In this document: piece by piece, positions 10,012 through 51,181 of the stretch
Numbering within the stretch: the first letter of the stretch is position 1
Layout of the letters: every line of letters starts with the position of its first letter
Source: Glossina fuscipes
Lineage: Eukaryota; Arthropoda; Insecta; Diptera; Glossinidae
Direction: 5' to 3'
Length of the DNA: 64,000 nucleotides
NCBI RefSeq assembly: GCF_014805625.2
Contig: NW_023998432.1
Location: 4,520,707 to 4,584,706, forward strand
Translations under genes and position numbers: made by a program
The notes under the pieces: model-generated
What the model was told of the DNA's origin: nothing
Database searches by the model: none
Seen by the model: only the letters and a program-made list of their open reading frames with translations

Positions 10012-10189
10012 GAAATCAAACCCTAATATCCATTGCCGAACTCCTATGTTCCATTGGCACTATCGAAATTAAAATCTGTTAAAAATCGTTTAATCAAACC
10101 CGTAGAAATCAAACCCTAACATCCATTGCCGAACTCCTATGTTCCAAAGGCACTATCGAAATTAAAATCTGTTAAAAATCGTTTAATCA
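10012..10189. repeat. 93-bp tandem duplication, two units
   Basis: A unit starting GAAATCAAACCCTAA and ending AAAATCGTTTAATCA occurs at 10012 and again at 10105, a period of 93 bp. The copies differ at only a few bases (for example CTAATATCC versus CTAACATCC, and CCATTGGC versus CCAAAGGC), so the duplication is recent relative to the surrounding debris. No coding function is evident. Confidence 0.9.
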
Positions 10190-16700: not shown

Positions 16701-16811
16701 TTACAGTACCCAAGGAGGACAGCATATATCTCTGTGTTTGACGTTACTGGATTTTTTTTAGTGATTTGTGTGTCTGTTCTTCATAATCCACAACTGTCTT
16801 TTTGACAGAAC

Positions 16812-17915
16812 ATGGGGTGTTTATATACACCTTCTCGGGCGAAATCAGGCCCGGATTCTGATAGATTGGTTTCTTGTTGGCTCTGCGAGCGCTTTGGTCA
16901 TGCAAAGTGTGCCGGTATTCTCGGCCGTGCTGCTGACGCAGTTGCTGATCCGTCTAAAGGCTTGAGATGGTCATGTCCTGACTGTAGGCAGCGGGACATT
17001 GACTTTTATAAACATTTCACGGAGACCCGTTATGGTTTCTCGGAATTGAGTAGAAATCTCGGCTCCTTGTGGGAGAAGTTTGAGCTCATTAAGTCTAGGT
17101 TTGATGAGTGTCGCTTTATTGGACACTCATCTTCTACTCGTAGTGTAGCGTGTGGGACGTCACCTCTGGCTTTCTCCAAATTTAATTCGTTGGTACAAGT
17201 TACCGCTCCCTCTAACCCTAAAATCAACAGTAATGTTTCCGATATTGCTGAGTCGGTTGGTAGCAAAACAGTTACAAACAAACCGGCAAGTCCATCGGTT
17301 TTAAACTACGCTGAAGTGGCAAGGGTATCTCCGCCCAGAGCCGCTACTCACTCTAATCAAGCGCCATCGCCTAAAAGTAATGAAGAGAAAAATAAATCAT
17401 CCTCTCCTCCTGGCTGTTCGCGTGTGAATGCAGGTCACCAGACTGGGCAAGTCTCACAAGCTGCCGGTACAAAGGCGATAACCCCATCTATATTTTCCCC
17501 AACTCGAAACTCTCCTACCGTGAACCCCCCTCCTGTTCCAAATAATGACATGTGCTTGACGGCAGTTCCTCCTAGAAAAGCAACATTTGTGTCAAGACTG
17601 GCACCTGAAACATCGGTGGATAACATAAAAGGTTATCTGGCGACGAAAGTCCCATCAGTCAATTTAAAGCGTGTTAGCATCTTCAAAATGGCTCCTTCTC
17701 AAGCTAGGGCAATCTCCTCTTTTAAAATATTAGTTCCGACTGAAAACAGTGATATGTTGTTAAACAAATCACTGTGGCCAGTAGGATCCTTAATTAAGGA
17801 ATTTATCCCTCAAGATCGTCTCCGTAATACCAAGGCAATAGTTTTGTCGCCTTCAAAAAACGAATTGTTTCTTCAGGCCCACTATCTCTCATTTATCAAA
17901 ATGTTAGGGGTCTAA
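16812..17915 (+). CDS. LINE ORF1, PHD-like zinc-finger protein
   Basis: The 367-residue product is the nucleic-acid-binding ORF1 protein of the retrotransposon. Near residues 22-60 it has a CWLCERFGHAKC finger, then a WSCPDC pair, a compact Cys/His pattern like the PHD fingers found in ORF1 of many insect LINEs. The middle (about 100-230) is Ser/Pro-rich and probably disordered; the C-terminal third (TFVSRLAPETSV onward) resembles the globular domain of such ORF1s. The ATG at 16812 is the first methionine of the frame ahead of the finger. The frame is uninterrupted, unlike most transposon frames in this window. Its last ~88 nt overlap the beginning of ORF2 in the -1 frame. Confidence 0.85.
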   Translation: MGCLYTPSRAKSGPDSDRLVSCWLCERFGHAKCAGILGRAADAVADPSKGLRWSCPDCRQRDIDFYKHFTETRYGFSELSRNLGSLWEKFELIKSRFDECRFIGHSSSTRSVACGTSPLAFSKFNSLVQVTAPSNPKINSNVSDIAESVGSKTVTNKPASPSVLNYAEVARVSPPRAATHSNQAPSPKSNEEKNKSSSPPGCSRVNAGHQTGQVSQAAGTKAITPSIFSPTRNSPTVNPPPVPNNDMCLTAVPPRKATFVSRLAPETSVDNIKGYLATKVPSVNLKRVSIFKMAPSQARAISSFKILVPTENSDMLLNKSLWPVGSLIKEFIPQDRLRNTKAIVLSPSKNELFLQAHYLSFIKMLGV

Positions 17916-20728
17916 ATTCGAAAATTCGTTCTACTTTTCTAAATTCAGTGAGCACGGAATTTTTCTATTTGGTCTTCACTGAAACTTGGCTAAAACCCGA
18001 ACTTCATTCGTCGGAACTTTTTCATAATTCTTTACAAGTGTTTAGAAATGATCGAGTGAATCGCATTGGTGGTGGTGTATTAATTGCCATATCTGCGTCA
18101 GTCCCGTCCAATTTAATTGAATTTCCCACTTCTCCTGACGTTGAATTTATCGCTATTCGTGCGAATATGCCTGATAAACATCTATTTATAACCTGCTCCT
18201 ATATTCCCCCAAATTCTGATATCTCCATTTACAAGAAAAAGGCTGTCCTCATTTGTGAAGTGGCCGAGCAGTCGAAACCCACCGATTTGGTAGTTGTATT
18301 GGGAGACTTCAATTTGCCTAAATCCACTTGGTGTGACAGTGATAATTCTGGCTGTTTGATTCCTACTTCAACGTCTGATAGAGCTGTTGTGTTCTTTAAC
18401 GAATTATTTGATCATAATTTGGTTCAATATAATCGTAACCCTGATTGCAATGGTAGACTGCTTGATCTCTGCTTTGCCAATTTTCCCGAGATTTACGTAA
18501 ATCGTTGTCCACCTTTTATTTTGCTTGAGGATCCTTATCATCCATCAATATGCATTTCCTTTCATCATATGAATGATGGTTTGTTGAAATGCCTTAATGT
18601 GCCAAATCAAACTTTCTTAAATAAATATTTTGATTTTCATAACATCAATATTGTATTGCTAAAACATCGTCTTGATTTCTCAACCGGAAGTATTGAGAGC
18701 TTATTGCCATCGTTCCACAATACATTAAATCTAGCTATTGCTGCATCTGTTCCGATCAAGCATTGTCGACCTCGAAGCAGGTGTCCCCCGTGGTTTAATA
18801 AGACAATTAAATATCACAAGAATAGAAAAAACTCGCTATTCAAAAAATATTCGAAAAGTGGCTCTGTGCTCGACCATGTCGCTTACTCGGTGGTGAGGCA
18901 TAGATTTAACTCCTTCAACCATCATTATTACTGCAGATACCTTCAGTTCATTAAATCCTCTCTGTTTGCTAATCCTAAATTCTTCTTCAAATTTGTTAAC
19001 TCTAAAAGAAAAATTTCCACATATCCCTCTCATGTTTCTTTTAATGGCTCTGATTCCTCGGATGATTTTGAAATCTCAAATCTATTTGCTGAGTATTTCC
19101 GACGTAACTTTTCGATTGCTAATTTCGATTTATCAGCAAACTACCCATATCCTATAACTAACTCGGTTTCAATACCTAACTTGGTTATTTCGGAAGATGA
19201 CGTTTTTAAAGGGTTGAGTTCTCTAAAATACAGTTGTTCGCCTGGACCTGATGGAATTCCATCATGTGTACTTAAATCTTGCGCTGTCGAGTTATGCGGT
19301 ATGATCTCAAAGATTTTTAACATGTCCTTGTATTTAGGTGTTTTCCCTTCATGTTGGAAGAGTAGTTTCCTTATTCCTATCCAAAAGAGTAGAAGTAGAC
19401 AATTTGTTGAGAACTACAGAGGCATAGCCAAGTTGAGTGTCTTGCCCAAGTTGTTCGAGCGTATTGTGACTCAGCATTTGGCCTTTGCCATTAATTCGTA
19501 TATTTCTCCGCACCAGCACGGCTTTCGTAAAGGGCGATCTACAGTCACCAACTTGTTAGAGTTTACCTGTCATGTTTTCAAGGCTTTTTCAAGTGGCTCT
19601 CGCACAGATGTTATTTACACTGATTTAAGCAAAGCATTTGATATGGTTAACCATAGACTACTTATCTTTAAACTCCAAGCCTCTGGTTTCCCACCCTACT
19701 TAGTGAAATGGATAATCTCTTATCTGCACAATAGATGCTTCAGGGTTTTGTTTAACTCCATCACCTCGGATGAATTCCCCGTTACGTCTGGCGTACCTCA
19801 AGGAAGTCACTTAGGTTTTATTTTATTTAGTTTATACATTAATGATCTCCCATCGGTGGTTAATTCCAGCCAGATTTTAATGTATGCTGATGATGTGAAA
19901 CTGTTTTCTTCCTTCTCTGTTGAATCGCAATCACATCAGCTTCAAGGTGATTTGGATAATTTTGTTGCATGGTGCTCTTTGAATCTTCTGAAACTAAATC
20001 TGAGTAAATGTAAGAAGCTTTCTTTCTCAAGAAGAAAGTCATTCATTACTCAGTATTTCATAGATTCGCATAAGTTGGAGGACGTCGATTCGATTACAGA
20101 TTTAGGCGTTCTATTTGACCATAGGTTACGTTTCAACTTGCATATTGAGCTCTCGATAAGCAAACCTAGGTCCGCGCTTGGTTTTATAAAAAGGTGGTCC
20201 AAAGAGCTTGATGATTCCTACATGACGAAAAGGCTGTACATGTGTTTGGTTAGACCCATACTCGAGTATGCCTCAGTTGTGTGGTCTCCTTCATATAGGT
20301 GCTACGTAGATTCAGTTGAATCTATTCAAAAGCAATTCTTGCTGTTTGCCCTTAGAAATTTGGGTTGGGATCCGATTGCCTCTCTTCCTCCGTATGAAAA
20401 TAGGTTGCTTCTGCTGTCCCTACCGTCTCTTGAGAAACGTAGATTTGTTCCTGGCGTTTCCTTTCTAATTAAAGTAATAAATAGTGCAATTGACTCGCCT
20501 TAATTACTTGGTGAAATAAGCTTTAATGTCCCTAACCACTTCTCTAGGCACTTTATCTTGGTTAAGCTTAATCAGTGTAAATTTAATTATGAGCTGTTCA
20601 ATCCGCTCAGAGTCGTTTGCAAGAACCTAAATGACGTCTACCACTTATTATCGTTATCGGACTCTTTAAAGTCCATTAAAGCAACATTGCTTAATACGCG
20701 CGATTTACCTATGTCGTATTTAAACTAG
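17828..20728 (+). pseudogene. LINE ORF2, endonuclease-reverse transcriptase with one nonsense codon
   Basis: The frame is open from 17828, has no ATG at its start and overlaps ORF1, so it would be reached by reinitiation or frameshifting. Domains in order are an AP-type endonuclease (YQNVRGLNSK, FTETWL, VLGDFN, EDPYHPS) and a reverse transcriptase (HGFRKGRST, TDLSKAFD, SGVPQGSHLG, catalytic YADD), then the C-terminal domain. The first long stretch stops at TAA 20501-20503. The same frame continues downstream without another stop as LLGEISFNVPNHFSRHF to TAG at 20726-20728, which looks like the true C-terminus. So a single nonsense mutation appears to be the only lesion. The natural product would be about 960 aa. 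Confidence 0.88.
17855..17861 (+). promoter_or_regulatory. Candidate -1 frameshift slippery heptamer
   Basis: A_AAA_AAC lies in the ORF1/ORF2 overlap and is phased exactly as the X_XXY_YYZ rule requires relative to ORF1 codons. Slipping back one base moves ribosomes into the ORF2 frame, which is open from 17828 onward. I do not see an obvious stable stem downstream, so termination-reinitiation near the ORF1 stop is an alternative. Confidence 0.4.
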
Positions 20729-21259
20729 CTTTCATCCTTAAAAAGTCGTTACGTTTCGAAAGTGAATTATTGTTAATTTATTATCGGTTGCCAGGCTTAT
20801 GCATGTTTGCGATGGCTTAGGGGTTCATTTGCAATTTNNNNNNNNNNNNNNNNNNNNNNNNNNNNNNNNNNNNNNNNNNNNNNNNNNNNNNNNNNNNNNN
20901 NNNNNNNNNNNNNNNNNNNNNNNNNNNNNNNNNNNNNATTTACCTATGTCGTATTTAAACTAGCTTTTATCCTTAAAAAGTCGTTACGTTTCGAAAGTGA
21001 ATTATTGTCAATTTATTATCGGTTGCCAGGCTTATGCATGTTTGCGATGGCTTGTACCGGTTGTAACTGTGACTCTATGCTGGTAATGTACATGGTTTTT
21101 GTCTTTTTTTTTCCTTCTTATTTGTTTTATTGTACTTATATTAATTTAATATAAGTTTTGCTTTAAGTGCTAATTGAACTCGACTGTTATTTGTCTAGTT
21201 GAGTTTCTAGTATAAGTGGAATAAATAAAATAAATAAATAAAAATAAATAAATAAATAA
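20729..21259 (+). repeat. LINE 3' UTR and A-rich tail, with duplicated segment
   Basis: It includes the sequence common to LINE 3' ends in this window (TTATCGGTTGCCAGGCTTATG). The segment starting at 20703 (just inside the ORF2 end) is repeated at 20938-21054 with only two mismatches over about 117 bp, one copy on each side of the N gap. The second copy leads into a T-rich stretch and the AATAAA-rich tail. Confidence 0.8.
20838..20937. other. Assembly gap (100 N)
   Basis: Exactly 100 N, the conventional placeholder for a gap of unknown length. The near-identical flanks suggest the two contig ends overlap or belong to different LINE copies. The open frame crossing it from 20807 is meaningless. 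Confidence 0.98.
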
Positions 21260-32642: not shown

Positions 32643-33014
32643 ATGGTCAAGATGCAGCTGTTTTTAAATCTGGCATTAATAACGTCAATGTTTACGTTCA
32701 ATCTAATGCAACTAATTGAAGCAGCTCTTTACAGTAAATTGTTTATGGTGAAAAAATTATAAATATGGACGTCATTTGATTTTTTCTTTATTCTTTTTTC
32801 GGGAAGAAGATGACCCTTGCTATACGAAATCTGAAGTTGGTTTATGTAAGCCTTGGGCAGAATGTCCAACAATTAAGAACTTGCTTGAAAGCGGTGCATA
32901 TAAACTAGAGGAAGTAGAGAATTGTGGTTACGAAGTTAAGGAGGAGATAATATGCTGCCCTAAGCTGAAAACGGATGTCAAGATATCTGATACCACTGAT
33001 CGTACGGGTGTAAC
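32643..33014 (+). CDS. psh: Signal-peptide and CLIP-domain exons (1-2)
   Basis: Exon 1 ends at a GTAAAT donor (phase 1). Exon 2 begins after a GAAGAAG tandem acceptor, so splicing at 32806 or 32809 both keep frame and differ by one residue (Lys-Asp versus Asn at the junction). Exon 2 carries the whole CLIP domain, with the double Cys pair ICCP at its end, and stops at a strong GTAAGT donor at 33015 in phase 2. ATG 32643 is used because it gives a hydrophobic leader; the longer frame from 32562 adds only a Lys/Arg-rich stretch ahead of it. Confidence 0.85.
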
Positions 33015-36000
33015 GTAAGTCTTTTTTTGTGTTGCGGTGTTGACATATTTTATATTTTTCGGAAAATAGTCGTTGTGCGGCATTAAATGTTGTAAAATCC
33101 AGTTTGATTGTTCCCATTCAATTAACTTGTTGGTTCGGGTGGAACTTGTAACACCGTAATTTTTACTTCTCATTAGCTCCCTGTTTCTCTTTACATTTCT
33201 CTTTTTTCACTCTCTACATTTTCTAGTGAAACAACAACAAGAAAAGATTTTTGGTTGGTTTTAATAAGTAGGAAAAATCCAGATTTTTGGCTTGATCTAT
33301 TAGAACCAAAAATAAAAGCTTTGTTGCAAAAAATCCCTAGTACGACGGCAAAGGTAACCGCCACAAATTTATCTGTCATCATAGCATGAAAATCTTTGAT
33401 AATGTCGAGTAAGAAATTGGCTATCAATGACCACCATGATTTTGCGGTACTTTTACGAAATAGGAGCGCAGGTGAAAAAATAATTGATGGTGCAGTTGTT
33501 AATATTACCTTGTTACCTTATTTTAAAAGTAATACCAATAGTCAGGATTTAAGTGCAGGACCAGTTAATATATTTAAAAAAAGTGATAATTGTGGGCAAA
33601 AATATATTGCAAATAATAATCGGTTGCAAGAGCGATGGACAGAAGATATTATCTCTATCAATCAACTAGAACGGTCACGGCAATCAGAAATGCCACCGAT
33701 AGAGACTGGCAAAAGAAATGTGGAAAGTAGCAATGAATCTAGAAATAATGAAACGAGTGAGGTGGGAATGGATTTTGCACAACAACCGACGCAAAGCAAT
33801 GGCAGACTATTCAACAGCGCCTTAGAAAAGCCAATAATTTCAGAGAGGGAATTTTTAAAAATTTTTCGGTATGGTCAGACAAAAACAACAAATACGAGAA
33901 AAAGAGCAACGAAAAAGTGTCCTAAGCAGCAATTCTTCTGCAAATATCCCGAATGCTGTTGTCGCACAGCAAGATCTACGACAACAACAACAAGTACGAA
34001 AGCGCCCAAGTAATACTAATTCTTTGAACGCAGAACAGTTAAGTGGTCAGACATCCCAGACCTTTTCAGATCAAGTAACGCAGCGACAACGACTACAAAA
34101 TTAATCTGCTAACAAAAACCATCAAAGTTTGCAAAGCAATACTGACCTAAAAATTGTTAAAATGTATGCTAGACACTATCAGCAGCAACAATCACAAGTT
34201 GGACAATTGCAGCAAGCATTTGACAATAAATTGCAAAATAAACAGCAACTAAATATTTTAATTTAAATCGGTTTGCTACCCACCAAGGCTCCCAAAATAC
34301 TGGCATTTTATTCAGTAATCCAATGTTTCGTTCGTTACAACGTTTGAATGTGAAACTGTCTGGTTTGCAGTGATCATCGCAGATCAAAATGATTTCACAA
34401 AATAACGAAATTTTGCTAGCAAACCAGAATTTGAATTTGACTCCGTCTTCGATACAACGACTTTCACAAAATAATAGTTTGTTACCAAGCAGCCAAATGC
34501 TTCCAGACGCACAGAACTCATTCCCTACGGAGCTTTTTTCACAAATGAACGGCTTTTTGTCATATAGCCCAGTGCTGTCGGCAACACATGATTTCAAGTT
34601 CAATCTGCCTGCTACGCAACAATCTGCACTAAATAAACATATTTCAGAAAATAACCAAACACTGTCAGCAACACATAACTTCCAGTTGATACCGGCTGCT
34701 GCGCAACTACTTCCACATAATAATAGCTTTTCGCCAAATATTCAAGTGCCACTAGCAATACAAAGCCCTCATTTGAACCCAACCGTGCAGGAACAACTTG
34801 CACAAAATAATGACCTTTTGGCAAATATTGATGTGCAGCGAACAATACCAAACATGAACTTCAATTCCTCTGCAAACCAACAATTTGATTTAAATAAAAT
34901 CACTTTAGAAAGTAATCAGAAAGTTCAACAAAATGTGCGAACGCGATTCCCATGTGATGCGGTTGTGGTTTAAATGTTCGCAAATCAGCAACAGCACATC
35001 ATTCAGCACAATTTCAGCACATCAATGCTAACAGTAGTGAAATAAGAGCATATCCTCCACAACATACTATCCTTCTATGGGTAGAAGACAATAAAGTAAA
35101 ATTCAACAGTAATAGTTCATCAAATTTATTAATTTGTTCAAATTATCCGCAACGTATACATTATCACACTGCCTGCATGCTTAAACAAAAAGTAGAATTC
35201 AAGAACTCAACACAAATTCCACAATTTATTCGTCAAATGCTGGGTAATAATTTGGAAAAGGAGTTATCAGCTACGGGAGTTATCACCCCGAATAATCAAT
35301 CATTGGTGGATAACTTTGAAAATAATATTACCGCAAATGGGGAATACGTAAGTAAGCAGTGCGGGAGGTAAGCCAGCGGGATCTGAATTTCAACAATTCT
35401 TTTCTCCAAGGGATCATCCGAAGAACAGAAAAGTGGAAACAAACTAACGAACTGAAGCAATATTAAGGTGGTTATCATTTGCAAGGTTATGGTATCTAAA
35501 CACATTTTATTGAATTAACATAGTTTTTATCATTTATTTTTTTAATGGTTATGCGAATTTTCTTGAAACTTAATGCTAAAGATTATACATTAAATTAAAG
35601 TATATTTTGTTCTGTTTTTTTCAGTATAAGACGGACTAACATTTCAGAGAGTGGCAACAGCGAAAGAGCGGCGGTAAGAGGTAAGTGTCAAAGATTACAA
35701 CTAGCAGCGGACGCATATTCGACAAATTTATTTTTAAGGTTTCCGTGATTATACTGGTATTTTCTTTCATTTCTGTAAATGTATTCCATGAGCATTATTG
35801 ATATTGTTCATTTATTTATGAAATTCAGCTGAAATAAGCTAACAGCCGACTTCAAATAATTCTTAGAAATAAATGTAATGCTGAGCATTAATAATTATTA
35901 CAAAGTATTTAAGGAAAAACAAAGAAAATATTAAAACATAAAAGGAACAAAATTCATATATAAATAAACAGGAGAAAAAAAAGCAAAAAAAATTATGTAC

Positions 36001-39000
36001 ACATGAAGCACAGAGGCACACACAGCAGGTGTAAATGCGAGTCGAAAGTGAACTCCTAAGACTTTGAAAACATACAAAAGCTTGGCAAGCGATACTAGTG
36101 AAAAAATTTGGTTTAGTTTTCGGATCATGCAAGGATATCAAGATTGAAAGCTAATTAGATACAACATATGGAAAGTACGCGTATTTAGGAAAGCTGATTT
36201 GATAGATGTCGGGGATTGGAATATTGAGATTAAATTAAATTAACAAGAGACAGTTAGGTCATAATCAAATTCTAAGAGTGAAAAAAGCAAGAATTGCTTT
36301 TGAACGGATTCTATTGAATGTAAATAGCGCCTATAGTTCGGAGACTACAAAAAGAGTACTCAAGTATTGATCTAACTAAACTCCTCGTCAAACTCTCTAG
36401 ATTATCGTATAATACAACCGAGCACAGATATTTTTTGCAGCGAGCTTAATGTGCAGATTAAAACGTAATACTTGGTCGAATAAAAAATAGCTAACCTTAA
36501 TACATTATAAAACAAGGATATTAGAGTTTGCATATTCTCAGTAGAATGAAAAGATGAAAGATGTAAACGGCACAATATTGGCTTTATGAAATGCTATTGT
36601 ATATCTGAGCAAGGAGTGTTTAACAAGTTAGATATTTTGAACGGGCCAAGCTGCTTTTAATGAAACGATAAACAAATTTTTGAAGGATACGGATCCTCAC
36701 GTAAAAGTAGACAGCGATTTACAACTATACCTACGAAACTGACAAAGCAAAGATGTAGCAGCCTGCCAGTACAATCACGAGTACGATTACATTTAAATAG
36801 ATTATGGTCAAATACATTGAAAACACGTGAGCCTGAGGACATATTCAATGTTTGTGTGTGGAGCAACTGCAGAATTAGTATATCACGGACGATCCCGCGG
36901 AGTATATTTCTTTATTAAGAATCCTAGTGGCCACAAGGTAGTCTTTTCAAGAATCTCAGTGTTTGCCGTCAGAACTAAAATCTTAAAGGAACGGAAGGCT
37001 CGAATTTGTGATGGAGATAATTTAAAAATGCAAACACAATTAAAGTTAATAGATAGAGCTTTTGCAGCAACGTAAAGTTTTATATTATCGCTTGAGGTGT
37101 TCAGTGGCAGTCTTCATACAAGTAGTGCTTTCCCAGGCGGTACTGCCATCAAGGAGACAACTTTCGCATAAGGACCATAAGGAATCGGGGGCAGAGAATT
37201 CTGAAATAGGGAAAAAAAGAGAGAGCGACTTTTGTTTCTTGTGCAACTTGGTGCTCTGTACATACACAGGATGTACTACGGGTAAAGAGAGAGGAGGTGG
37301 TTTTATTATTTTTACTTACATTATTTTGAGATATGGACTGAATCTATCAGGCGGATGCCCTCTGGCCGTATCAGCCTAACTGATACGATGAGAGTAAGTA
37401 CCGTCATTGACGATAAGCAAGAAGGTTGACCAACATGGGCGGCCATAAGCAAAACCAGAGGAAAAGGATCAGAAGATAAGCTACTTGTTGGTCTTCTACA
37501 GGTTTGAGGAGAAGCTGGGCGCTAAGTATCGACACTCATCGAACATCGATTTAATTTTTTCATATTTTCCAGGCAATGCCGTAAGTTCCCCACTAACTTG
37601 CGAAAAAGCTTTTCTTGACTGTATGAAAACCTTATAAAAATCTATGTCTTGCTTTTTACAGTCGGGACACGACCAACGCAATCCTTTTGATGGACACAAG
37701 GCTGTGTCCGCAGGTCTGCCAGTAACACCCGCACATCTCACGTGATAGTGTCGTTCGTAAAGCCATTAACTGACGCAACAACTTTGGCATGGCAAGGTAT
37801 AAACAAACATTTGACTTTAGAAGAAGGCGAATAAAACAGAATTCATGAAGAGAGAAAAAGCAAACATAAAATTATCCAAGTATCCACATTGTTTACTTAA
37901 GATATCACACAAAATGAGCACTATTAAAACACTGTAAGCAAGGAGAAGACTGTAATCAAGGTAAACAACGAAGATGTTTACAAAGTAGGAACAATCCAAG
38001 CCAAGCAGAAAAGAAGAAATTAGCAAATAATGACAAAGCAAAGCAAAGAACAAATGGTTTTTCAGCCTGCGATACCTATCAAAATTTATTTAAAAACAGA
38101 CTTTGAACACCAGCCAGAAACTCTTCTAAAGGTATGGCCACGAGTGGAACCCAAAACAAGCCAAAGAATGGCCAAAAAAAAAAAAAAAAAAAATACAAAG
38201 AATTTTCCTGACTAGAGCACAACTGTTGACCGCAAAAAGACAAAACGATTAGAACACTTAAAAACAATTTGATGAATATAAATGGCAAACATAATGCGAT
38301 TATTATTGCTTTTGCTTAAAACTGTAAGTAGAAAAGAATTCACAAAATTTCTCAATCCAGGCGAAGGATACGACTCCAGCGCGCAATTTAAATATACATA
38401 TATATGTATAGTTTATGTGACCTTTATTTCGCGAAATTTATCGAGAGATTTATTAGAAATTATGAATTATGCTTGCTTATTTTTGTTATTAAAAATTATT
38501 ATACAAATAAAATTGAGCGACAAATTTTATTAATTCAGCAATTTAATTTTATTTCTGCAACGAATTTTGTTATTTTGTATATTTGCTGATAATACCATAT
38601 ATCATTTATCATTTATGTTAGCATTGGTGTTTGGGACTGTGGTATACGCATACTTCCTTCCTTCTTTCTCTTTTTGCAGAGTACACTCGTGTATATTTTT
38701 AAGTAACTGCATATTATTTGTTCTATTTCTAATGCAGCAAATTACCACCGTTTTAGAAGCTAAAGTAAATTCAATAAGTATTATAATAACTTAATATGAT
38801 GCATCTTGGTAGTATTTGATTTCTTCAACCTTATCAATATTCCTATAGTGGCCTTACGTTGAGTTACTATGTCATTGAAATCGCTAGTTTATATTCCAAA
38901 TTTTAAAAGCTTTATGTTGAATTTACAACAAATCTCTTTTTTTTGCTATTATAAAATTTGTCATTTTGAAATAATGTGTTATCATTAGAGAAAATAATTA

Positions 39001-42000
39001 TATTATTACCTCTTATGCTAATATTATTTTCTGAATTCCACTTAGTTCGGTTTTCTTGTTACGCGCATTCTTAATAACTGGTGTTTCATCATCTACTTTT
39101 TGTCAGGCGCAATTCCTTAATCTTTCTACTTGGATAAGAAATATACACTTTATTTTTAATGTATGCAATCAGTTCGTTAAGTGGGTCTCACTAATACTGA
39201 GTTTTTTCGTTCGGCAAAACACTTGTTAAGCCTAGTCCATTGTCCAAACATAAAAATTTATTTTACTACTTTATATTGCTAGGGAATACATATTAAAATA
39301 TAAAAAAAAGCAAAAGAACACATTATCCCAGTAGAGAAGAAAATAAAATAACATCAAAAACTTCCAAAACATAGAGCCATTAATATTGGGTTTTTCTCAC
39401 ATAAGGAAGAATACGGAGATAAAAAACCGCATAATATTAAAGATTAATGTTCAGTGGGGTATCCATTTTGCTTAATAACGTCATTTAAACGTTATGACTT
39501 TTTTTTTATAAGTTTTCTTGTGTGGGAAACAGGGATGTTATCCCATTCCGCTTATAGTGTGTTTTTCAAGCCTTGGACGAAAGGTATTGAGTGTTTGCGC
39601 ACACGGCGGTCTAATTCATCCCAAATAATTTTGATAGTGAGGGTGAAGCACTTTGTGGCAGTTATATAAGAAACACTCTTAAATTAGGCGGGGCTTGTGC
39701 TTGGTCGTTATCTTGGTAGAATTTAAAGATATGGAAAAACTACTAACTCTAGATGAGTGTTGCTCCGATATTATCGGAAGTTATGAGTTAACAAGTAAAA
39801 AAGTTAATTAAGGCGGGGATTGAATCTCGCATACCTACCACTACATATTTCGCATTCTACTCTCCAAATTATTTTATTTGATATCCATATCGCTAGTATT
39901 ATTAAGAAAGTGTATGGTGTCTACCATACTCATTTTAAAATTAACCAATTTTTAGGCAGACAATATATCTTCCTTATTTCTTCAACGGATACATTATAGG
40001 AAAAAACAAAATGACTATACTTCCGTCTTACAGTGGTGGGTATAAAACGTAAGTTCTATTGGAAATTAAATGGATTGGATATTTTCAATTCCGATGGCTT
40101 TAGAGATGGAAATGGTTCGAGAAATTACGACGGAAATGATAGCGATAAAGAGGTTGATTAAAATTTATAGAAACTGAGGAAGGATTCTGTTTCTATTCAG
40201 ACATTAATCTCGAAGGAGAATGAAACTGCATTGGGAGACATTAGGCAATAAATGTTTTGATAAACAATCAACTCACACAATATTTAAAAAAAACAGCAAA
40301 TCCAACCGCTTAATCGAAGCGAAGCGTTATGCCCGAGGAAGTAAGCATTGCTTTTTGGATATTAATCGCTGACATAATGGGGACCCACGTCAAAATTCGC
40401 GCCGAACAGAAGGAGGAAGATCAGATTGGTGAATTATATGTTTTTATGGACGTATTCAATGGTAGAACCAAGAACAACAAAAATATATAATCAAAAGGAA
40501 CGAAAGATGACGGTATCAAAAAGCATTCAATAAATATAAAACAAAGTATAGTGTAGTAGTACAGTAAGTGGTATAAGTGAAGTCAACTATTTAACCGTCA
40601 ACTGTGGATGTGCCGGCAAAAAGAACACTTTTCCGAAATATCTTCACAGGATTAAAAGTTATAAGCGAAAATATGAAAAAATTATGATTTTTTTCGAGGT
40701 TATTTTATTTTCCCATTTATGGTGACCGTGTGTTTACGCATATCGCAAGCATTTATTTAATATTACATTCCTAATTGACCAAGGAATTTTGTGCAAATTT
40801 CATCTTCTGACTTTTATTTTTGCGATTGTGACATAATGACAAAAATACGGGGTCAGAACGACCCCTTTTTGTAGAAATAGGTATATATAAAAGGTCGGTA
40901 ATTTAATCTTAAATAGTCTACAATCCCTACAGTTATATATCCGAACCATTTTCAATAGCGTTTGTTCTTGGGCCTAAACACGTAATTTCGTCAAAATGTC
41001 CCAAAAATTGTGACTTGTAAGTTGCACCAGGAAAACAAGTGAGACGGATAGACAGACAAAACTAAATCGATTTAGAAAGTGTTTTTGAATCAATCGGTGT
41101 AATAAAGTTTCAGTCTTTTCCAAGCTCTTCTAAGTATTGCACCCATCCACACAAACATAATACACACATGTACCACAAACTGTATAGGGTATAAAAATTA
41201 TATAAATACACTGTGGCTTTCGATGTTGATTTCAAATTAAACGCAAAAGCGCTTACTTGATCCATAGGTATTTTCAGTTAATTTAATTATGCAGATAAGT
41301 CCTTTCGTCTGTTAAAATTCTCGCCCATGGACAATTTTAAGATCGTAAATGTTAAGATAAAAATGTAGATTTTAATACGCATGTTCGCCAATAGATTCTC
41401 CAAGCAGATTTTCGAAACGTATATGGTCAGGTTACAAATACTCCGACAATACCTTAAAACTTGGAACAAATTCAAAAATAGATAAAACCACATATTTGAT
41501 AACAATTACAAGACATTACATTCTGTAATAAAACGTCCATGATTATAGTTAACTTTGATATGCTTTCTGGAAAATACGAGTATGTCATCTTTACCCTCAT
41601 TAAGAATCTTACTTTTTATGGATATGAGTACGCTACTCTTTTCAAATTTGTCTTTTAAATTTTTTTTTTTTTTTTTATATTTCAGCCTGTAAGAAACTGG
41701 AAACTCGTGAACAACCTGCTCACTTGACTCCTCACATATTGGAAGGTGTGCCAGCTGCATTAGGCGAATTTCCACATATGGCCGGGATAGGTTATAGTCG
41801 CAGCATCGGCGACGATAGCCCCCCTTACATTGTACGTTGCGGTGGTGCTCTCATCAGTGCACGATTTGTACTTACAGCTGCTCATTGCGTTGCGTCAAGG
41901 GATAACGTTCCGAAAGCTGTTGTTTTGGGTGTGGTAAATTTTAATGACCCTGAAGAAATGAGTGCAGCGCTGCAAATTAAAATAAAGGTAGTTTAAGGCA

Positions 42001-42700
42001 TAATTCGAAATTCTACGACTGAGGATTTTTTGTTTCACTTTTTTTAGGAAACTCATATACATGACAATTATACATCAAGTACCACCTACAATGATATTGC
42101 GTTGCTTGAGCTCGAACAGGACGCAGAATATTCAGCATTCGTTTATCCTTCTTGTTTACATATCGACGAAAATGATCCTTCAGAAAGTGAAACTCTTCTC
42201 GTGACCGGTTGGGGCACCGTTAATACTGCGAGTAAATTACATTTTTTGCGCCTTATTATTTTACTTGTTCAGATATCCTTTTTTATCACTTGTCTTAGCT
42301 CGTGCCTCCTCTGACATCTTACTGAAGGTTAGTTTGGATATAAAACCTTTAGCGAGCTGCAACGAAATTTTTGCGAAGTATGGTTCAGATCGTCGTCTGA
42401 CCCAAGGTGTTGTCAAAACATTACTATGCGCAGGAGATAAGGAAGCCAAAAAAGATGCATGCTCCGGGGATTCCGGTGGCCCTTTGAATTTAGTGATAGA
42501 TGGTAAGATCACATCTTTTCTTTTGTAGTGTTTTCTAACTCTTTTTGATATTCTGCATAGAATCTTATCGTCAGTATCGCATCGTCGGCATAGTATCGTC
42601 CGGTTTCGGTTGTGGTACTTCAATACCAGGTTTATATACTAGAGTAGCGTTATTTCTTGATTATATTGAAAAAATTGTATGGCCAGATGGTGTGGTTTAA
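32643..42700 (+). CDS. psh: CLIP-domain serine protease, persephone/Hayan type
   Basis: The gene encodes a secreted clip-domain protease; in flies the persephone/Hayan pair relay microbial danger signals to the Toll ligand pathway and to melanization. Exons inferred from GT-AG sites and phase are 32643-32733, 32807-33014, 35625-35680, 41686-41987, 42048-42231, 42299-42502 and 42561-42700: 1185 nt, 394 residues, no internal stop. Residues 1-28 form a signal peptide. CLIP cysteines are 35, 44, 50, 70, 80 and 81. The activation site is PH|ILEG (His135-Ile136), the His-Ile cleavage known for persephone, with ILEG in place of the usual IVGG. The catalytic triad is H185 (TAAHC), D235 (YNDIALLEL) and S339 (CSGDSGGP); D333 at the base of S1 predicts trypsin-like specificity. 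The C-terminus [19 protein letters not shown] and IVWPDG are very persephone-like. Whether it is one-to-one with psh or co-orthologous with Hayan cannot be decided here. Confidence 0.9.
33227..35367 (+). pseudogene. Decayed Q/N-rich cassette exon of the protease
   Basis: A strong polypyrimidine tract and TTTTCTAG acceptor precede 33227 and an AG|GTAAGC donor follows 35367. The entry phase (one base, T) and exit phase (two bases, AG) make it skippable without changing frame. Reading from the CLIP exon gives ACT-Glu-Thr-Thr-Thr-Arg-Lys and then coding-like sequence, but with a TGA at 33387, a frame switch near 33865, a TAA at 34102-34104, a switch back near 34258, a TGA at 34371-34373 and another switch at about 34900-34960 before an open stretch (34958-35367) reaches the donor. 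The exon length, 2141 nt, is not a multiple of three. The composition is Gln/Asn/Ser-rich with imperfect ~29-residue repeats. In flies Hayan has a long isoform with an extended low-complexity linker at the equivalent position. Confidence 0.7.
34380..34930 (+). repeat. Imperfect ~29-codon Q/N-rich tandem repeats
   Basis: Within the cassette exon successive units share a core like [36 protein letters not shown] and [14 protein letters not shown], giving at least six degenerate repeats of about 85-90 bp. Such repeats are prone to replication slippage and could explain the frame switches around them. Confidence 0.7.
35625..35680 (+). CDS. psh: Small linker exon of the protease
   Basis: It is bounded by TTTTTTTCAG and GTAAGT. 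The 56 nt read T-ATA-AGA ... AGA-G, an 18-codon Ser/Arg/Glu-rich linker ([14 protein letters not shown]) that leads by a split Ala codon into the CKKLE of the next exon. Only this phase is open; the other two contain stops early on or break the join. Confidence 0.8.
36657..36866 (-). pseudogene. LINE endonuclease fragment
   Basis: [20 protein letters not shown] with [15 protein letters not shown] matches LFDHNLVQYNRNPDCNGRLL and LLEDPYHPSICISFHH of the LINE ORF2 at 17828-20728. This is the C-terminal half of the endonuclease domain of a related, decayed copy. Confidence 0.85.
37496..37790 (-). pseudogene. LINE ORF1 PHD-like finger fragment
   Basis: [20 protein letters not shown] then [16 protein letters not shown] matches KCAGILGRAADAVADPSKGL and RWSCPDCRQRDIDFYK of the large LINE ORF1. 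It lies upstream of the endonuclease scrap on the same strand, so both derive from one insertion with about 0.6 kb deleted between them. Confidence 0.88.
39440..39790 (-). pseudogene. Tc1-like transposase C-terminal fragment
   Basis: On the minus strand, FYQDND (second catalytic Asp block), a degraded PQS/LNP region, [12 protein letters not shown] and AEWDNIP are readable, the order seen at the C-terminus of Tc1 family DD34E transposases. The frame is broken near 39620 and again by a stop before AEWDNIP. Inverted repeats are not found. The 71-codon plus-strand frame over it is its antisense shadow. Confidence 0.75.
40930..41205 (+). repeat. Interspersed repeat, 3' part (family D)
   Basis: It shares blocks with 51825-52140: CCGAACCATTTTCAATAGCG corresponds to CCGAACCGTTTTCAACAGCG, a GAGACGGATAGACAGAC stretch, and the terminal GTACCACAAACTGTATAGGG matching GTACCACAAGTGGGGTAGGG. 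Non-coding. Confidence 0.75.
41686..42700 (+). CDS. psh: Catalytic-domain exons of the protease (4-7)
   Basis: Four exons separated by 58-67 bp introns encode the complete trypsin-like domain. Splice phases are 0 (41987/42048), 1 (42231/42299) and 1 (42502/42561) and each join restores family residues, for example Asn-Thr-Ala-Thr-Arg-Ala-Ser-Ser at 42231/42299 and Asp-Gly/Glu-Ser-Tyr at 42502/42561. The TAA stop is at 42698-42700. A His, Asp and Ser triad and the CG..C Cys pattern are intact, so the domain shows no sign of decay, in contrast with the cassette exon. Confidence 0.92.
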
Positions 42701-43059: not shown

Positions 43060-43563
43060 TCAAAAATATTTGGATTTTGATTTTCTCAACATGTGTTGGG
43101 TATAAAGGCGGAGTTCTTTGAGGGTTAATAAAAGAGTAGTGCTGGTGATGGTATTGTAGATTTTCTTCTGTAATTTTCTCTTTAACTTTTCTTGCGATGC
43201 ACCTTTGAAGTTCCAAGAATATTTTGAGCCGTCTGTGTAAAAAACATTCCAACCAGTACTCTCCAATACTTGGGTTTTTTCAGCTATTAGATTCCTGAAG
43301 ACGTAATTTGGAGTATTTTCTTTCTTGTGCATAGACAGCGAGATGTCAAAAGAGCAGTCTTTCAAAATCCATGGAGGTTTAACACCAAAATAGCGAAAAA
43401 TTTTTAAGGGAATGTCCAATTCTTTCGCGAGGTACAAACCATAGTCAATTGCAGATGGTGACTTTTGAATTTTCTTCGCAATAATAATCCTTTTCACGTC
43501 ATCACCGAGAATAGATTTGTTTGAATTAAAAAAGCTTGAGGACTTTTTTAGCTTTGAACTCAT
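43060..43563 (-). pseudogene. I-element ORF2 RNase H domain, partial
   Basis: GWNVFYTDGSK is the first catalytic Asp motif of the RNase H domain carried by I-clade ORF2 proteins. The frame loses similarity soon after, so the remaining catalytic residues are not visible in it. Confidence 0.75.
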
Positions 43564-43568
43564 AAAGT

Positions 43569-45226
43569 CTATTTTCTAAAGTTTGGGATACCAGTTTCAA
43601 TTTTAATATTATTTATGGGCGTCGTCCGAAAAGCATAGCAACTTGCTCTGAGGGCGTGCTGATAGACCGGTTTAAGGATGTTGATATTAGGTTTGCAGCA
43701 ATTGCCATAAATTATCAAAGCACAGTCAATCTTGCCTAACAGAAGCATTTTGGTAAGATAAACAATAGTGTTAAAGTGCGCATGGCTTTTCCAAGCAGCG
43801 TGCTGTGTGAAATTCAACCTTGTTAAAATAGAAATTTTTGACCGAAGACAGTGTGCTTTCCAACGATATTTGTTGGCAAACATGAGCCCGAGAATGTGCA
43901 TCGTATGCAAGTTTATTACTGGTAAGTCATTAATATACATTAGTTGATTTTCTGCGTCGCATATCTGCTTTCGACAAATGTGCATTTTTTTTGGATTTTT
44001 GTATGGAAATTTTAACCGCTGGTGAGTTTGCCTATGCGGAGATCTCTCGTCCAATAGATTCGAGCGTGTTGATTTCCTCCATCTTTTTCTTTTGTTAAAA
44101 TGTATACATCGCCCGCGTAGAGACAACGTTCGACTCTTGGTACACGGCAAAAAATTTTTCTAATTTCGTTGGATGCGATTTGGAAAAGCGTGACAGACAG
44201 AGAAGTTCCTTGCGGAATGCTATTCATTGGCGGAGAGGAATCAGAGAGATGATTGTTGATTCTAACTTTAAGCCGCCGATGCGACATGAATGATTCGATG
44301 TGGTTGAAGAATTTGGATCCAATATTGCACGAATTCGAGAGTCTTCGAATAGCATGAAGACTAACTCTGTTAAATGCTTCTTCGAAATCAATTGAGAGAA
44401 TTGTTACACGATTTTGTTAGGAATTTGAATTGCTTGTAAAATAATCAACATATGAAAGAGTGTCGATGCACCCTCTACCCCGCTTGATACCAACTTGTTG
44501 CTTTGTAATCAGTTCTTGGACTCAAGAAACCAAGATAATCTAGATGCTATAATCTGTTCTAATAGTTTTGAGAGGCGAGATAAAAGAGAAATTGGCGATA
44601 GTCCGATGCGATGAAGATTATTTTTGACTTTGGAATTGGACTGCTGCCAGTTTCCACATGCAGGGTATACGGCCAGTCAAAAATATTGTATTATATAGAT
44701 CCCGTAATTTCATTTTATGTGAATTAGACAGAGTACTGATCATTAGGTATGAGATGCGATCTAGACCAGATGTACTCCTCTTCAGTTTGGAGGGATAACT
44801 TTCAACTTCTAAGGTAGATATACAATTTTTCAGGAACATGGCACATTTGTCAATAGCATTTGAAAGGGAAATTGGCGTCCTTTCATTTTCGATGAAAGCA
44901 TTGGAAAAGTGGCAATCAGAGGAATATTCGCACCACACTTTTCCAAAATAGTTAGAAATCTCATCTGCGTCAGTTAAACTTCCATTGGGAGTGCAGATGG
45001 CAGAAATTTGATTCAAATTTGAAGTCTCATTGAGTGTGTTGATTTTGTTCCAGACAACTTTCATTGATATTCTGTGAATTCTTTTCGAGAAAAGGTCGAA
45101 ATTAAGTGCCTTTGATTTTCGTAATTCCTTCCTGAATAGAGCATTGGCCTTTTTGTATAATAACAAATGATTATTATCAGGACGTCTTTTAAAGCGGTGC
45201 CATAGATCTATTTTGTTTTTCCTCAA
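43569..45226 (-). pseudogene. I-element ORF2 reverse transcriptase, broken
   Basis: The 44618-45226 frame is the RT N-terminal region (RKNKIDLWHRFKRR to STSGLDRISYLMI, IPCMWKLAAV). 44012-44287 holds NSIPQGTSLSVTLF and CLYAGDVYI, where the catalytic YADD has become YAGD. 43569-44150 holds the thumb (MHILGLMFANKY, RASCYAFRTTPINN). Frameshifts separate the three parts. Confidence 0.85.
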
Positions 45227-46014
45227 TAACGAAAGCGTGTTGTTCCACCAAGGAGCCTAGCTCTTTCGGAAAAGCCGTTGGATTGAGGAATAGAAAGGTG
45301 AGCAGCCGTGCGATTCGGTTTAGACATAATAGCAACATCATGGTTGCACTTCCCGTTAAATGACTTTGAGTTCAGAAATGACTCGGCCTGTTTGGAGTAA
45401 TTGATCCAATCCGTATTGTCTAGGAGGAATTTGGCTGTTTTGCTGGAGTAACAGAGGACTTTGAAAGCTTAAGATCGATTATGATTGGAAAGTGATCATT
45501 ATTATGTAGATCATTAGAATTAGACCAGTAAACCAAAGGAAGAAGAGTCGGGGAGCAACATGTTAAATCAATATTAGAAAAGGTGTGATGAGTTGAAAAG
45601 TGCGTTGGTGTTCCATCAATTAAAATGCAGAGATTGCTTTAAATGAAGGCCTTTTCTAAAGCAGTATCACGGCTCCCTGTTGAGCCCCAGATGGTATTCC
45701 ACCAAGTAAAGTCGCCCCGCATAATTAATGGGGGGGAAAGCACAGAGAATAAGTTATAGATTTCTTACTGAGAAAACGATTGCGAAGATGGGATATAGAG
45801 CGAAAGCACGGTAAACTTTATGTTTAAGATTATTTGTATAGCTACGGCTTATATATATGAGCTTAAATTTATGCGTTTGTGATGTATACTTGATTTTATA
45901 AAAACAACAACTCCTTCTTTGGAATATAAATTGATCAGCATTTGGGCGGAATAGAATTAAAAGAGCTTCTGCAATGGGTCTCTTGGAGCGATATAAAGGT
46001 TGGATTAAAATCAC
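45227..46014 (-). pseudogene. I-element ORF2 endonuclease domain, broken
   Basis: Between about 45730 and 45400 the minus strand reads CILIDGTPTHFS, NIDLTCCSPTLLPLVYW and DLHNNDHFPIII, the characteristic endonuclease C-terminal half with the catalytic Asp-His pair (NDH). Stops occur before and after. PWWNNTLSLLRKNK near 45240 links it to the RT domain. Confidence 0.75.
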
Positions 46015-46081
46015 TTATGAGTGTGCGGAATTTACCAGATTTATTAATAATTCGTGACATGGAAATGGAGCGGTACGTGAG

Positions 46082-47401
46082 TTATGTTGACATGTCAGCG
46101 ACTCCGTCGAAAATGTCGCTATAGGAGTTTTGCGTGAATAATTTATTCTTGCCAGCAGAATAATCTGTATTTAGGTGGTTGCGTATATTTGAAGTGGAAC
46201 GAGTGGGCGCACGTAAATAATTTGAAATTGAAAGTTGATTAACGGATGAAAGGTTGGATTCATTACAGCTTACAATTTGTTGACTAGGGCTGAGAGCTGA
46301 TGATTCTGGGGAATTTAGTTTATTAGGGTTTACGATACGTGTAGTTGTTTTAATTTTATCAATATTTGGTGTTGTTTTGATTTTTTTAACATTATTTTTG
46401 GCGGGTGATGTATCTGGTTTCGATATATGATTTTTGGCTGATGGCAGAACAGATTTGACATTCGAAAGTGTTGGAGTTAAAGGCTTATTGGGCTCAATTT
46501 GCGAGGCGACAGGAGCATAGGTATTATTTTTATGAATTTTTTGGGTTCCAGTTGGATATATTTCCCTGCACTTGCGGCGCGATTCTCCCATGCTACACAG
46601 CAATTTTTTATTTTGATTTTTTAAATTTCATCCATTTGTATATAACGTGGGCATTGTTTGTCTAACGCCGAGTGCTGATCATTGCAATTTATACAGCAAC
46701 TACGCGTACGTACAGCTTTCAGAATGTGGAAGAAGACCACAGTTAGCACAAGATAAAGTACTGTTCCACTTTTATGCCATATGACCAAGGCTATAGCAAT
46801 TTTTGTATCTCATGGTATTTGGAACGTAGAGATCCACTTTACATTTATACCAAGCCACATCAACTGTTTTCGATGATCGATAGCAATCACAGGTCACAAT
46901 TATCCTTCCTGTAGGAGGAATTTAATTTGGTGAATTTATAAACTTCAGTCACGCCTTGATGGCTTATTTCGCTAACTATTTCGTCTTCCGGTACATGTTT
47001 AAAGCATGGGGCATATATTACGCCTTTAACGGAGTTAAGTTTGTCATGTAGTTTAGCGGAAATAGCACATTAATTAACTAATGATTTCGATTTTTTGAGG
47101 TTTTCGGCTGCGCGCGGGTTGTCAGCGAGGACAAGTAAATTCCCATCGTATAGAATCGAAATAGACTCTATATATACAGTGTAATGCTATCCAGTGATTT
47201 TTTAATAGCAAAAGAGCTGATTTGTGAAATTGTTATGGTAGGGTTAGTTGAAGAAGTCACAACATATTTTTTCTCAATAGGAGTGATGCTACTGGTTGGC
47301 AACACCGCAAAGTCCGAATTTTTAATTTTTTTTCTTTGGTGGGATACGTCTGCTAATAGATAAAATCTATTTGAGTTTTTATCTGGCGGCCCCGAGCCCA
47401 T
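46082..47401 (-). pseudogene. I-element ORF1 (gag-like), broken
   Basis: The start is at 47401 (MGSGPPDKN). A gag-like middle follows in shifted frames, then a CCHC knuckle at about 46620-46695 (CINCNDQHSALDKQCPRYIQ), and a Lys/Asn/Pro-rich tail (46603-46082) ending GVADMST. It binds element RNA in intact relatives. At least two frame switches interrupt it. Confidence 0.8.
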
Positions 47402-49631: not shown

Positions 49632-50896
49632 AAGTTGGGGAAAAAGAAATCCATTATTTTTATATGAACTTCAGGACTTTATTTAACATGCTTCGGATTG
49701 TCCGATTTGGGTCAAATATGCACCGTTTTGTTGTACGATTTGTTGCCATTTTAAAGGTAACTTCAAAATGCCTCTCTCATAGAAGTCCTGGTCTCTATTT
49801 GCAAAAAACTCTACTAGTCGATTTTCACAATCCTCCCTAGATTCCAATTTTTTATCATTAAAGAAATTTTGCAATGCAAGAAAAAGATGATAATCGCTTG
49901 GTGCCAAGTCCGGACTGTATCGCGGATGCATTAAAACTTCCCAACCAAGCTCCCGAAGTTTCTGGCGAGTCACTGTAGATGTGTGTGGCCTAGCGTTGTC
50001 CTGGTGGAACACGACACCTCTCTTGTTGGCCAATTCTGGCCGTTTCTGGTCAATCGCTATCTTCACACGGTCCAGTTGTTGACAGTAGAGATCAGAATTT
50101 AGCGTTTGGCCATATGGAAGCAACTCATAATAAATAATCCCCTTCCAGTCCCACCAAATGCATAGCAAAACCTTCCTGGCCGTTTGAGGTGCTTCACCGC
50201 TCTTTGACCACGATCGTTTTCGCACAGGGTTATCGTATGTGATCCATTTCTCATCTCCAGTCACCATCCGTTTAAGAAATGGGTCTATCTCATTCCGTTT
50301 GGCCAAGGCTTCGCAGATGGAAATTCGATCCATCATGTTTTTTTCTGTTAATTGGTGTGGCACCCAAACATCGAGCTTCTTTTCGAATCCAGCTTTGTGT
50401 AAATGGTATAAAACTGTTTTATGGTCGATTTTTAGCTCCTGGGCGATGTTACGACTGCTAACATGCCGGTCAACTTCGATCATTTCTCCGATTTTATCGA
50501 CATTTTCGACGACCGGCCTAACTGTGCGAGGTGCATCTTTAACATCAAAAATTCTTGAACGGGATCTACGAAACCAAAATTGCACATAATTGGCTGTTAC
50601 AGTATCGGAACCATAAACACCATTCACAATTTTAGCCGCCTGGCTTGCATTTTCGCCTTTGTCAAAGAAAATCTGTAAAATGTACCGAATTTTCTCTTTG
50701 TTCACTTCCATTTTTAACACGCTGTAACTCACAACTGAATGCACCAAACAAAAAACAGCAAAAGAATTTTTTTTACTGCGAAATGTCACCTTTCCAACGA
50801 GCATAAATATGAAATTGTTTGATCGATACTTTACGAGAAATCTATCAGTGCAGCCATCTACCGAAAAAATAATGGATTTCTTTTTCCCCAAACTAA
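49632..50896 (-). mobile_element. mariner transposon copy 2, apparently intact
   Basis: Inverted repeats of about 30 bp bound a 1.27-kb element: AGTTGGGGAAAAAGAAATCC at the left and, reverse-complemented, TTAGTTTGGGGAAAAAGAA at the right. The left repeat has lost one T relative to the right and to copy 1. TA dinucleotides flank both ends as expected for the mariner target duplication. It encodes a full transposase on the minus strand. Confidence 0.93.
49683..50711 (-). CDS. mariner transposase, full length
   Basis: The 342-aa cut-and-paste transposase starts at ATG 50711 (MEVNKEK); the upstream in-frame extension to 50891 lacks an ATG and runs through the 5' UTR into the inverted repeat. N-terminal paired helix-turn-helix motifs (about 1-110) bind the inverted repeats, WVPHQL (116-121) is the linker signature, and catalytic residues are D153 (TGDEKW), D238 (HQDNARPHTS) and D273 (YSPDLAPSDYHLF), spaced D,D34D. 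Length and motif order match family norms and no stop or shift is present. It resembles the cecropia/mellifera group more than the mauritiana or irritans groups, by inspection only. Activity is not shown by sequence alone. Confidence 0.93.
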   Translation of the reverse strand: MEVNKEKIRYILQIFFDKGENASQAAKIVNGVYGSDTVTANYVQFWFRRSRSRIFDVKDAPRTVRPVVENVDKIGEMIEVDRHVSSRNIAQELKIDHKTVLYHLHKAGFEKKLDVWVPHQLTEKNMMDRISICEALAKRNEIDPFLKRMVTGDEKWITYDNPVRKRSWSKSGEAPQTARKVLLCIWWDWKGIIYYELLPYGQTLNSDLYCQQLDRVKIAIDQKRPELANKRGVVFHQDNARPHTSTVTRQKLRELGWEVLMHPRYSPDLAPSDYHLFLALQNFFNDKKLESREDCENRLVEFFANRDQDFYERGILKLPLKWQQIVQQNGAYLTQIGQSEAC

Positions 50897-51181
50897 TATA
50901 ATATGCGGTTAAATAAACAAATAATTTTGGCTAAATATATGGAAAGAAAAGGGAGGAGAGATATAAAAAAGTAATGTAAAAAGTTAGTGGACTGTCAATG
51001 CAAATATTTAAACAAAACGTTCAAGTTAATATATATATGTTTAAGTTATATATATATATGCGAACAGCGAGCTAACCTGCTAAACTAGAAAGATTTTTTA
51101 TCAATAAAGTGATAACAAACTGGCATTACTGTAAGAAAGAAGCTTTAAACGAATAATTTCGACTCAACACCAGAATAAAAC
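50897..51181. other. Short spacer, AT-rich
   Basis: It contains TATATATATA runs near 51030-51060 and no recognisable gene. Confidence 0.5.

What the first reader, a model, noticed from the sequence alone, without database searches (positions are those of the whole stretch)
33227..35367. Phase-neutral cassette exon of a persephone/Hayan-type protease has decayed while the rest of the gene is intact
The seven flanking exons join at every splice phase into a clean 394-codon frame, yet the 2.1-kb exon between the CLIP and linker exons has good splice sites, a matching entry (1 nt) and exit (2 nt) phase, and three in-frame stops plus three frame switches. Skipping it links ACT-Ile-Arg-Arg without disturbing the frame. 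This looks like loss of a Hayan-like long isoform with retention of a short persephone-like isoform. If still included in mRNA, the exon would act as a poison exon giving a secreted CLIP-only product ending at the TGA at 33387. Established: Drosophila Hayan has long and short isoforms differing in linker length. Inference: the isoform split is ancestral and is being resolved here.
Basis: partly seen in the sequence, partly recalled or inferred. Interest (0 to 1): 0.78.

Follow-up and report, generated by a model that had tools for sequence, protein, structure and literature searches.

The report
Decayed long-isoform exon in tsetse protease
A tsetse-fly immune protease gene can still make its short protein, but the large optional exon that would give a second, long version of it is full of stop signals and frame breaks, so this fly has probably lost the long form.

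Summary
The window is from a tsetse fly close to Glossina palpalis. The seven-exon, 394-codon gene is as described: the co-ortholog of Drosophila psh and Hayan, with the His-Ile activation site. The cassette exon is real and was once coding: its three longest stop-free runs total 543 codons (0 of 2000 simulations), its start matches the long isoform of Teleopsis, and its 3' two-thirds matches proteins of G. austeni, G. pallidipes and an unnamed contig. With an end at 35467 the exon is 2241 nt (3 x 747), symmetrical in phase; 33227-35367 is 2141 nt and is not. The full exon holds five stops and four frame switches, not three and three. Relatives are open at three of the stops and two of the switches. 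A separate G. p. gambiensis record shows the same frame relation at two switches, which speaks against base-calling errors there. Best reading: relic of a Hayan-type long-isoform exon, dead in this lineage, short form kept. Poison-exon use is untested, and no RNA data were at hand. Real, moderately interesting, a variant of a known kind.

The parts
32643..32733 (+). exon 1, signal peptide region
   Evidence: open, GT donor
32807..33014 (+). exon 2, CLIP domain (an acceptor at 32810 is also possible)
   Evidence: Pfam CLIP E 0.012, 16.3 bits, below the curated cut-off of 20
33227..35467 (+). decayed long-isoform cassette exon, ancestral extent; 2241 nt = 3 x 747
   Evidence: single copy in the genome
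33246..33305 (+). stretch coding KDFWLVL...NPDFWLDLL, shared with the Teleopsis long isoform
   Evidence: score 57, 0 of 300 shuffles
33387..33389 (+). stop TGA in the entry frame
   Evidence: no open relative covers it
33850..33875 (+). frame switch 1 to 2, near T5-A5-T5 runs
   Evidence: P0121 in frame 2 from 33871, P0001 in frame 1 across it
34102..34104 (+). stop TAA in frame 2
   Evidence: P0121 skips the stretch behind it
34240..34263 (+). frame switch 2 to 1
   Evidence: P0123 begins here in frame 1
34371..34373 (+). stop TGA; R in P0121 and P0123
34971..34973 (+). stop TAA; Q in P0121, P0122 and P0123
34990..35010 (+). frame switch 1 to 0; one frame in P0121, P0122, P0123
35360..35378 (+). 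frame switch 0 to 1, at the derived donor GAG|GTAAGC (35368); one frame in P0122 and P0123
35445..35447 (+). stop TAA; Y in P0122 and P0123
35468..35473 (+). likely ancestral donor GTGGTT
   Evidence: P0122 joins exon 4 here
35625..35680 (+). exon 4, short linker
41686..41987 (+). exon 5, activation site LTPH|ILEG and start of protease domain
42048..42231 (+). exon 6, protease domain
42299..42502 (+). exon 7, protease domain with GDSGGP
42561..42700 (+). exon 8, end of protease domain and stop

Best explanation
The gene is the tsetse co-ortholog of Drosophila psh and Hayan. In an ancestor, one large in-frame exon between the CLIP exon and the short-linker exon could be spliced in, giving a long isoform with a Q/N-rich spacer of about 750 residues. 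In this lineage that exon no longer has an open frame: five stops and four frame switches. At least three of the stops and two of the switches are not shared with morsitans-group relatives. The gene now most likely works through the short isoform made by exon 2 to exon 4 splicing. If the exon is still included at times, translation ends at TGA 33387 and the mRNA is probably degraded. Shown: gene model, lesions, homology, open frames in relatives. Inferred: loss of the long protein, skipping of the exon in mRNA, function of the short form.
For: 394 open codons without the exon. Frame runs beyond chance. Start of the exon matches the Teleopsis long linker. P0121, P0122 and P0123 match exon frames 2, 1 and 0 in turn and are open at 34371, 34971 and 35445 where they cover them. 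Symmetrical length only with the end at 35467. P0001 has the same frame relation at two switches. A search for long relatives of 609-1937 residues with the whole exon found P0001 alone. G. morsitans is modelled as the short form. Exon DNA is single copy.
Against: No RNA. All relatives are predicted models or an ORF, not transcripts or DNA that I could read. None of P0121-P0123 covers 33227-33870, so the stop at 33387 and the first switch rest on the Teleopsis motif, the long open run and P0001. P0001 differs from the window at 13 of 287 exon residues but also at 4 of 97 in the signal/CLIP part, so by that measure the exon is not freer than the CLIP part, only freer than exons 4-8 (0 of 294). 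Open sub-exons exist.
Confidence: 0.8

Rival explanations
1. Exon remodelling: internal splice sites have turned the broken stretches into introns, and a long isoform with a shorter linker survives, as in the G. p. gambiensis model P0001.
For: P0001 is a 680-residue open model with two exon pieces. In this window exon 2 to 33530-34009 to exon 4 is open (160 codons), one of 144 open single sub-exons of 30 nt or more; 35035-35367 with a GTAAGC donor is open too.
Against: The second P0001 junction needs AG where the window reads CG. P0001 reads about 45 codons (33876-34009) in frame 1 where G. austeni matches frame 2. Each Glossina model uses different internal sites. The well-formed acceptor 33227 leads to only one open single sub-exon, of 32 codons.
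Confidence: 0.1
2. Poison exon: the exon is still spliced in on purpose, so that part of the mRNA is destroyed and the amount of protease is tuned.
For: The acceptor at 33227 is intact and a strong-looking donor GAG|GTAAGC lies at 35368; inclusion meets TGA 33387 after 53 codons.
Against: No RNA, no evidence of conservation of the site for that use, and at 2.1-2.2 kb it would be an unusually long poison exon (general knowledge). Intact splice sites are also expected soon after loss of the frame.
Confidence: 0.05
3. Assembly or base-calling errors in an exon that is really open.
For: One switch lies by T5-A5-T5 runs at 33850-33866. No second copy from this species could be checked.
Against: P0001 shows the same frame relation there and at 35370. 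Five lesions are stops. The other seven exons join open, and transposon frames of 415 and 891 codons in the window are open.
Confidence: 0.03

Closest known systems
Drosophila Hayan (short isoform PA; long isoforms PB and PD)
   Same: CLIP domain, His activation site, trypsin-like domain, and an optional long insert between them (PMC10732536, passages)
   Different: Here the insert exon is broken and was about three times longer (about 747 codons against 259 residues); the gene lies outside the Drosophila psh+Hayan group in the tree
Drosophila persephone
   Same: Short linker; CLIP plus protease; His activation site
   Different: psh is a lineage-restricted copy of an ancestral Hayan gene (PMC10732536, passage); the tsetse gene is a co-ortholog of both, not psh itself
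Teleopsis dalmanni persephone-like isoform X2 (P0006)
   Same: Long linker with the same DFW..LL motif pair
   Different: 193-residue linker by the marks, no breaks known
G. palpalis gambiensis model P0001
   Same: Same gene; exons 4-8 identical (0 of 294 residues differ); same frame relation at two switches
   Different: Model splices round the broken stretches; one acceptor it needs is absent here

Membership tests
psh/Hayan-type clip protease | trypsin-like domain with intact catalytic serine motif | tested here: met
   Pfam trypsin 4.2e-44; GDSGGP in the product
psh/Hayan-type clip protease | CLIP domain | tested here: inconclusive
   Pfam CLIP E 0.012, 16.3 bits, below cut-off 20; full-length matches to named psh and Hayan proteins
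psh/Hayan-type clip protease | His at the activation site | tested here: met
   LTPH|ILEG in the product; His reported as the unusual feature of Psh and Hayan (PMC10732536, passage)
psh/Hayan-type clip protease | groups with fly psh/Hayan proteins in a tree | tested here: met
   26 fly rows 100/96, within the calyptrate group 94/93, outside Drosophila psh+Hayan 100/99; midpoint root
Hayan long isoform | optional in-frame exon between CLIP and protease exons | tested here: not met
   position and ancestral length fit, but the exon is not open
Hayan long isoform | sequence relation of the exon to known long linkers | tested here: inconclusive
   Teleopsis 0 of 300 shuffles; Drosophila and Musca linkers not clear, best 24 of 300
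poison exon | included in mRNA and triggers decay | not testable with these tools
   no RNA data

The most novel reading that the evidence does not exclude
Tsetse groups differ in this immune switch: morsitans-group flies still make a long isoform whose giant spacer is kept open though its sequence drifts, while the palpalis group has lost it recently, so the genus is a natural experiment on what the long Hayan isoform is for.
Probability: 0.15. Interest if true: 0.6.

Novelty: new variant of a known kind. Interest (0 to 1): 0.38.

Why it matters
What the long Hayan isoform is for is unclear: short and long Hayan behaved alike in vitro (PMC10732536, passages). A fly lineage that lost the long form, beside relatives whose exon is at least partly open, would let that be tested in nature. 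It also warns that the Glossina models P0001 and P0122 look stitched round broken stretches and should not be taken as proteins without RNA.

Tried and rejected
Paralog with an intact long linker: not found. The exon DNA is single copy. Outside the gene, matches to the short protein over 150 or more residues reach 43% at most among the rows listed. Four regions that I fetched (L014-L017) matched nothing before residue 151 of the product. An own-genome search with the exon protein P0123 did not complete, so a diverged copy of the exon is not excluded. P0001 junctions as the form used here: second acceptor is CG. Pfam on three exon pieces: no match. Direct repeats in the exon: one 24-nt pair; a degenerate SxNN repeat is seen by eye only. 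A bacterial-type promoter scan is not meaningful in a fly. PDB search gave only general serine proteases. Papers: Glossina with Hayan 5 listed, Glossina with persephone and Toll 7 listed, no title or abstract start about this gene; in PMC5231409 the one mention of Hayan is a reference; in PMC6721284 12 of 29 places were seen, none on this gene; clip-domain proteases in tsetse, 10 of 11 listed, not opened; pseudo-exons, listing only. The species within the palpalis group was not settled. Rough age: five stops over an opportunity of about 105 per unit divergence gives about 0.05 substitutions per site since loss, with a wide error.

Full report
What the sequence is. The best matches of the 394-residue product are Glossina palpalis gambiensis (P0001, 100% over 75% of the query) and G. 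morsitans (P0002, 96%) among 120 listed of 2655. The window comes from a tsetse fly close to G. palpalis; the exact species is open, since P0001 differs at 4 of 97 residues of the signal/CLIP part and at 0 of 294 of exons 4-8. The assembly has 366 Mb in 709 contigs.

The gene. Seven exons join at GT/AG sites into 394 codons. Pfam gives trypsin at 4.2e-44 and CLIP at 0.012, the latter below its cut-off. The activation site reads LTPH|ILEG; a His there is the unusual feature of Psh and Hayan (PMC10732536, passages). In a tree of 30 catalytic domains, rooted at the midpoint, the gene sits with Musca, Cochliomyia and Sarcophaga (94/93) and outside the Drosophila psh+Hayan group (100/99), so it is a co-ortholog of both. 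Elsewhere in the genome the listed matches reach at most 43% over 150 or more residues.

The exon was coding. In 33227-35467 the longest stop-free run is 207 codons and the three longest sum to 543; 2 and 0 of 2000 Markov sequences reach these, and 70 tiles of other window DNA give at most 145 and 287. The first 54 residues align with the linker of the Teleopsis long isoform (score 57, 0 of 300 shuffles); linkers of Drosophila and Musca do not align clearly (best 24 of 300 shuffles as good). Of 123 retrieved proteins, 63 had the mark that ends the linker, and 3 of these lacked the CLIP mark; of the other 60, 22 Drosophila proteins have linkers of 202-320 residues, Teleopsis P0006 193 and P0001 323. 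In Drosophila the long Hayan isoform has a 259-residue insert and both forms acted alike in vitro (PMC10732536, passages).

Where it ends and how it is broken. A search with the linker of P0001 found, besides P0001 and the short P0002, three proteins: P0121 (G. austeni), P0122 (G. pallidipes) and P0123 (an ORF of an unnamed 4.2-kb contig). By tblastn P0121 matches frame 2 from 33871 (52% over a stretch whose tail is misaligned), frame 1 over 34290-35006 (74%) and frame 0 over 35006-35353 (68%). P0122 matches frame 1 over 34665-35033 (65%) and frame 0 over 35006-35359 (70%). P0123 matches frame 1 over 34242-35009 (71%) and frame 0 over 34997-35359 (68%). P0122 and P0123 go on in frame 1 from 35379 (83% and 89%), and P0122 then joins exon 4 as IL|SIRP. 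The ancestral donor is therefore most likely at 35468, and the exon 2241 nt = 3 x 747. In the ancestral frame there are stops at 33387, 34102, 34371, 34971 and 35445 and switches near 33870, 34250, 35000 and 35370. Relatives are open at 34371 (P0121, P0123), 34971 (all three) and 35445 (P0122, P0123), and keep one frame across the switch near 35000 (all three) and near 35370 (P0122, P0123). P0123 is one frame of 422 codons.

Limits of that comparison. None of the three covers 33227-33870. P0121 starts inside the exon and lacks CLIP and protease; P0122 jumps from the CLIP exon to 34665 and lacks the protease; P0123 starts near 34236. These may be poor models or contig ends, or may mean that the 5' part is broken in the morsitans group too. 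A search of proteins of 609-1937 residues with the whole exon found P0001 alone, so I saw no full long isoform in any Glossina.

Base-calling. P0001 is a separate record with its own residue differences. It reads on in frame 1 across the T5-A5-T5 tract at 33850-33866 and leaves at 35367 in frame 0, the same frame relations as here. The other lesions have no such check. P0001 avoids the breaks with junctions 33014/33530 and 34009/about 34981; the second needs AG where this window has CG, and its codons over 33876-34009 are in a frame that G. austeni does not share. I read it as an annotation patch; a transcript could prove otherwise.

Rate. The exon pieces differ from P0001 at 13 of 287 residues, exons 4-8 at 0 of 294 (p = 9e-5), but the signal/CLIP part differs at 4 of 97, a like rate. 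The three morsitans-group proteins are about 86% identical to one another. A neutral simulation needs about 0.14 substitutions per site for 71% identity and then adds 6.7 stops in 398 codons; half of that on one branch is about 3, against none in P0123. This hints weakly that the frame was kept open in that lineage while the sequence drifted.

How it most likely works. Splicing joins exon 2 to exon 4 and gives the short protease; G. morsitans is modelled that way. The acceptor at 33227 is intact, so inclusion is possible and would end at TGA 33387. Among 144 open single sub-exons of 30 nt or more, one starts at 33227 (32 codons). Whether inclusion happens cannot be told without RNA.

Verdict. 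Loss of a Hayan-type long isoform with the short form kept is well supported; the poison-exon idea is untested. In the held papers I found no account of this gene in tsetse (listings; passages).

Noticed in passing
window 49686-50930 (-) and 1902-3167 (+): Two mariner copies: the first with one open 415-codon transposase frame (Pfam Transposase_1 and HTH_48), the second split into two frames.
   Followed up: partly
window 16806-20503 (+): Non-LTR retrotransposon with a PHD-like first frame (369 codons, below the Pfam cut-off) and an open second frame of 891 codons with reverse transcriptase.
   Followed up: partly
window 43060-46627 (-): Several broken frames just downstream of the gene that look by eye like an old non-LTR element; the one piece tested (44618-45253) had no Pfam match.
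   Followed up: partly
window 20777-21154 (+): A run of unknown bases (X in the translation) inside an open stretch, with similar sequence on both sides.
   Followed up: no
window 38099-38191 (+): The third piece of the G. pallidipes model P0122 matches intron DNA here (52%), probably a model error.
   Followed up: no
window 35466-35510 (+): P0123 reads on past the donor into the intron with 14 of 15 residues like the window: the intron start is more alike than most of the exon.
   Followed up: no
window 10012-10189: Tandem pair of a 93-base unit, 96% matches.
   Followed up: no
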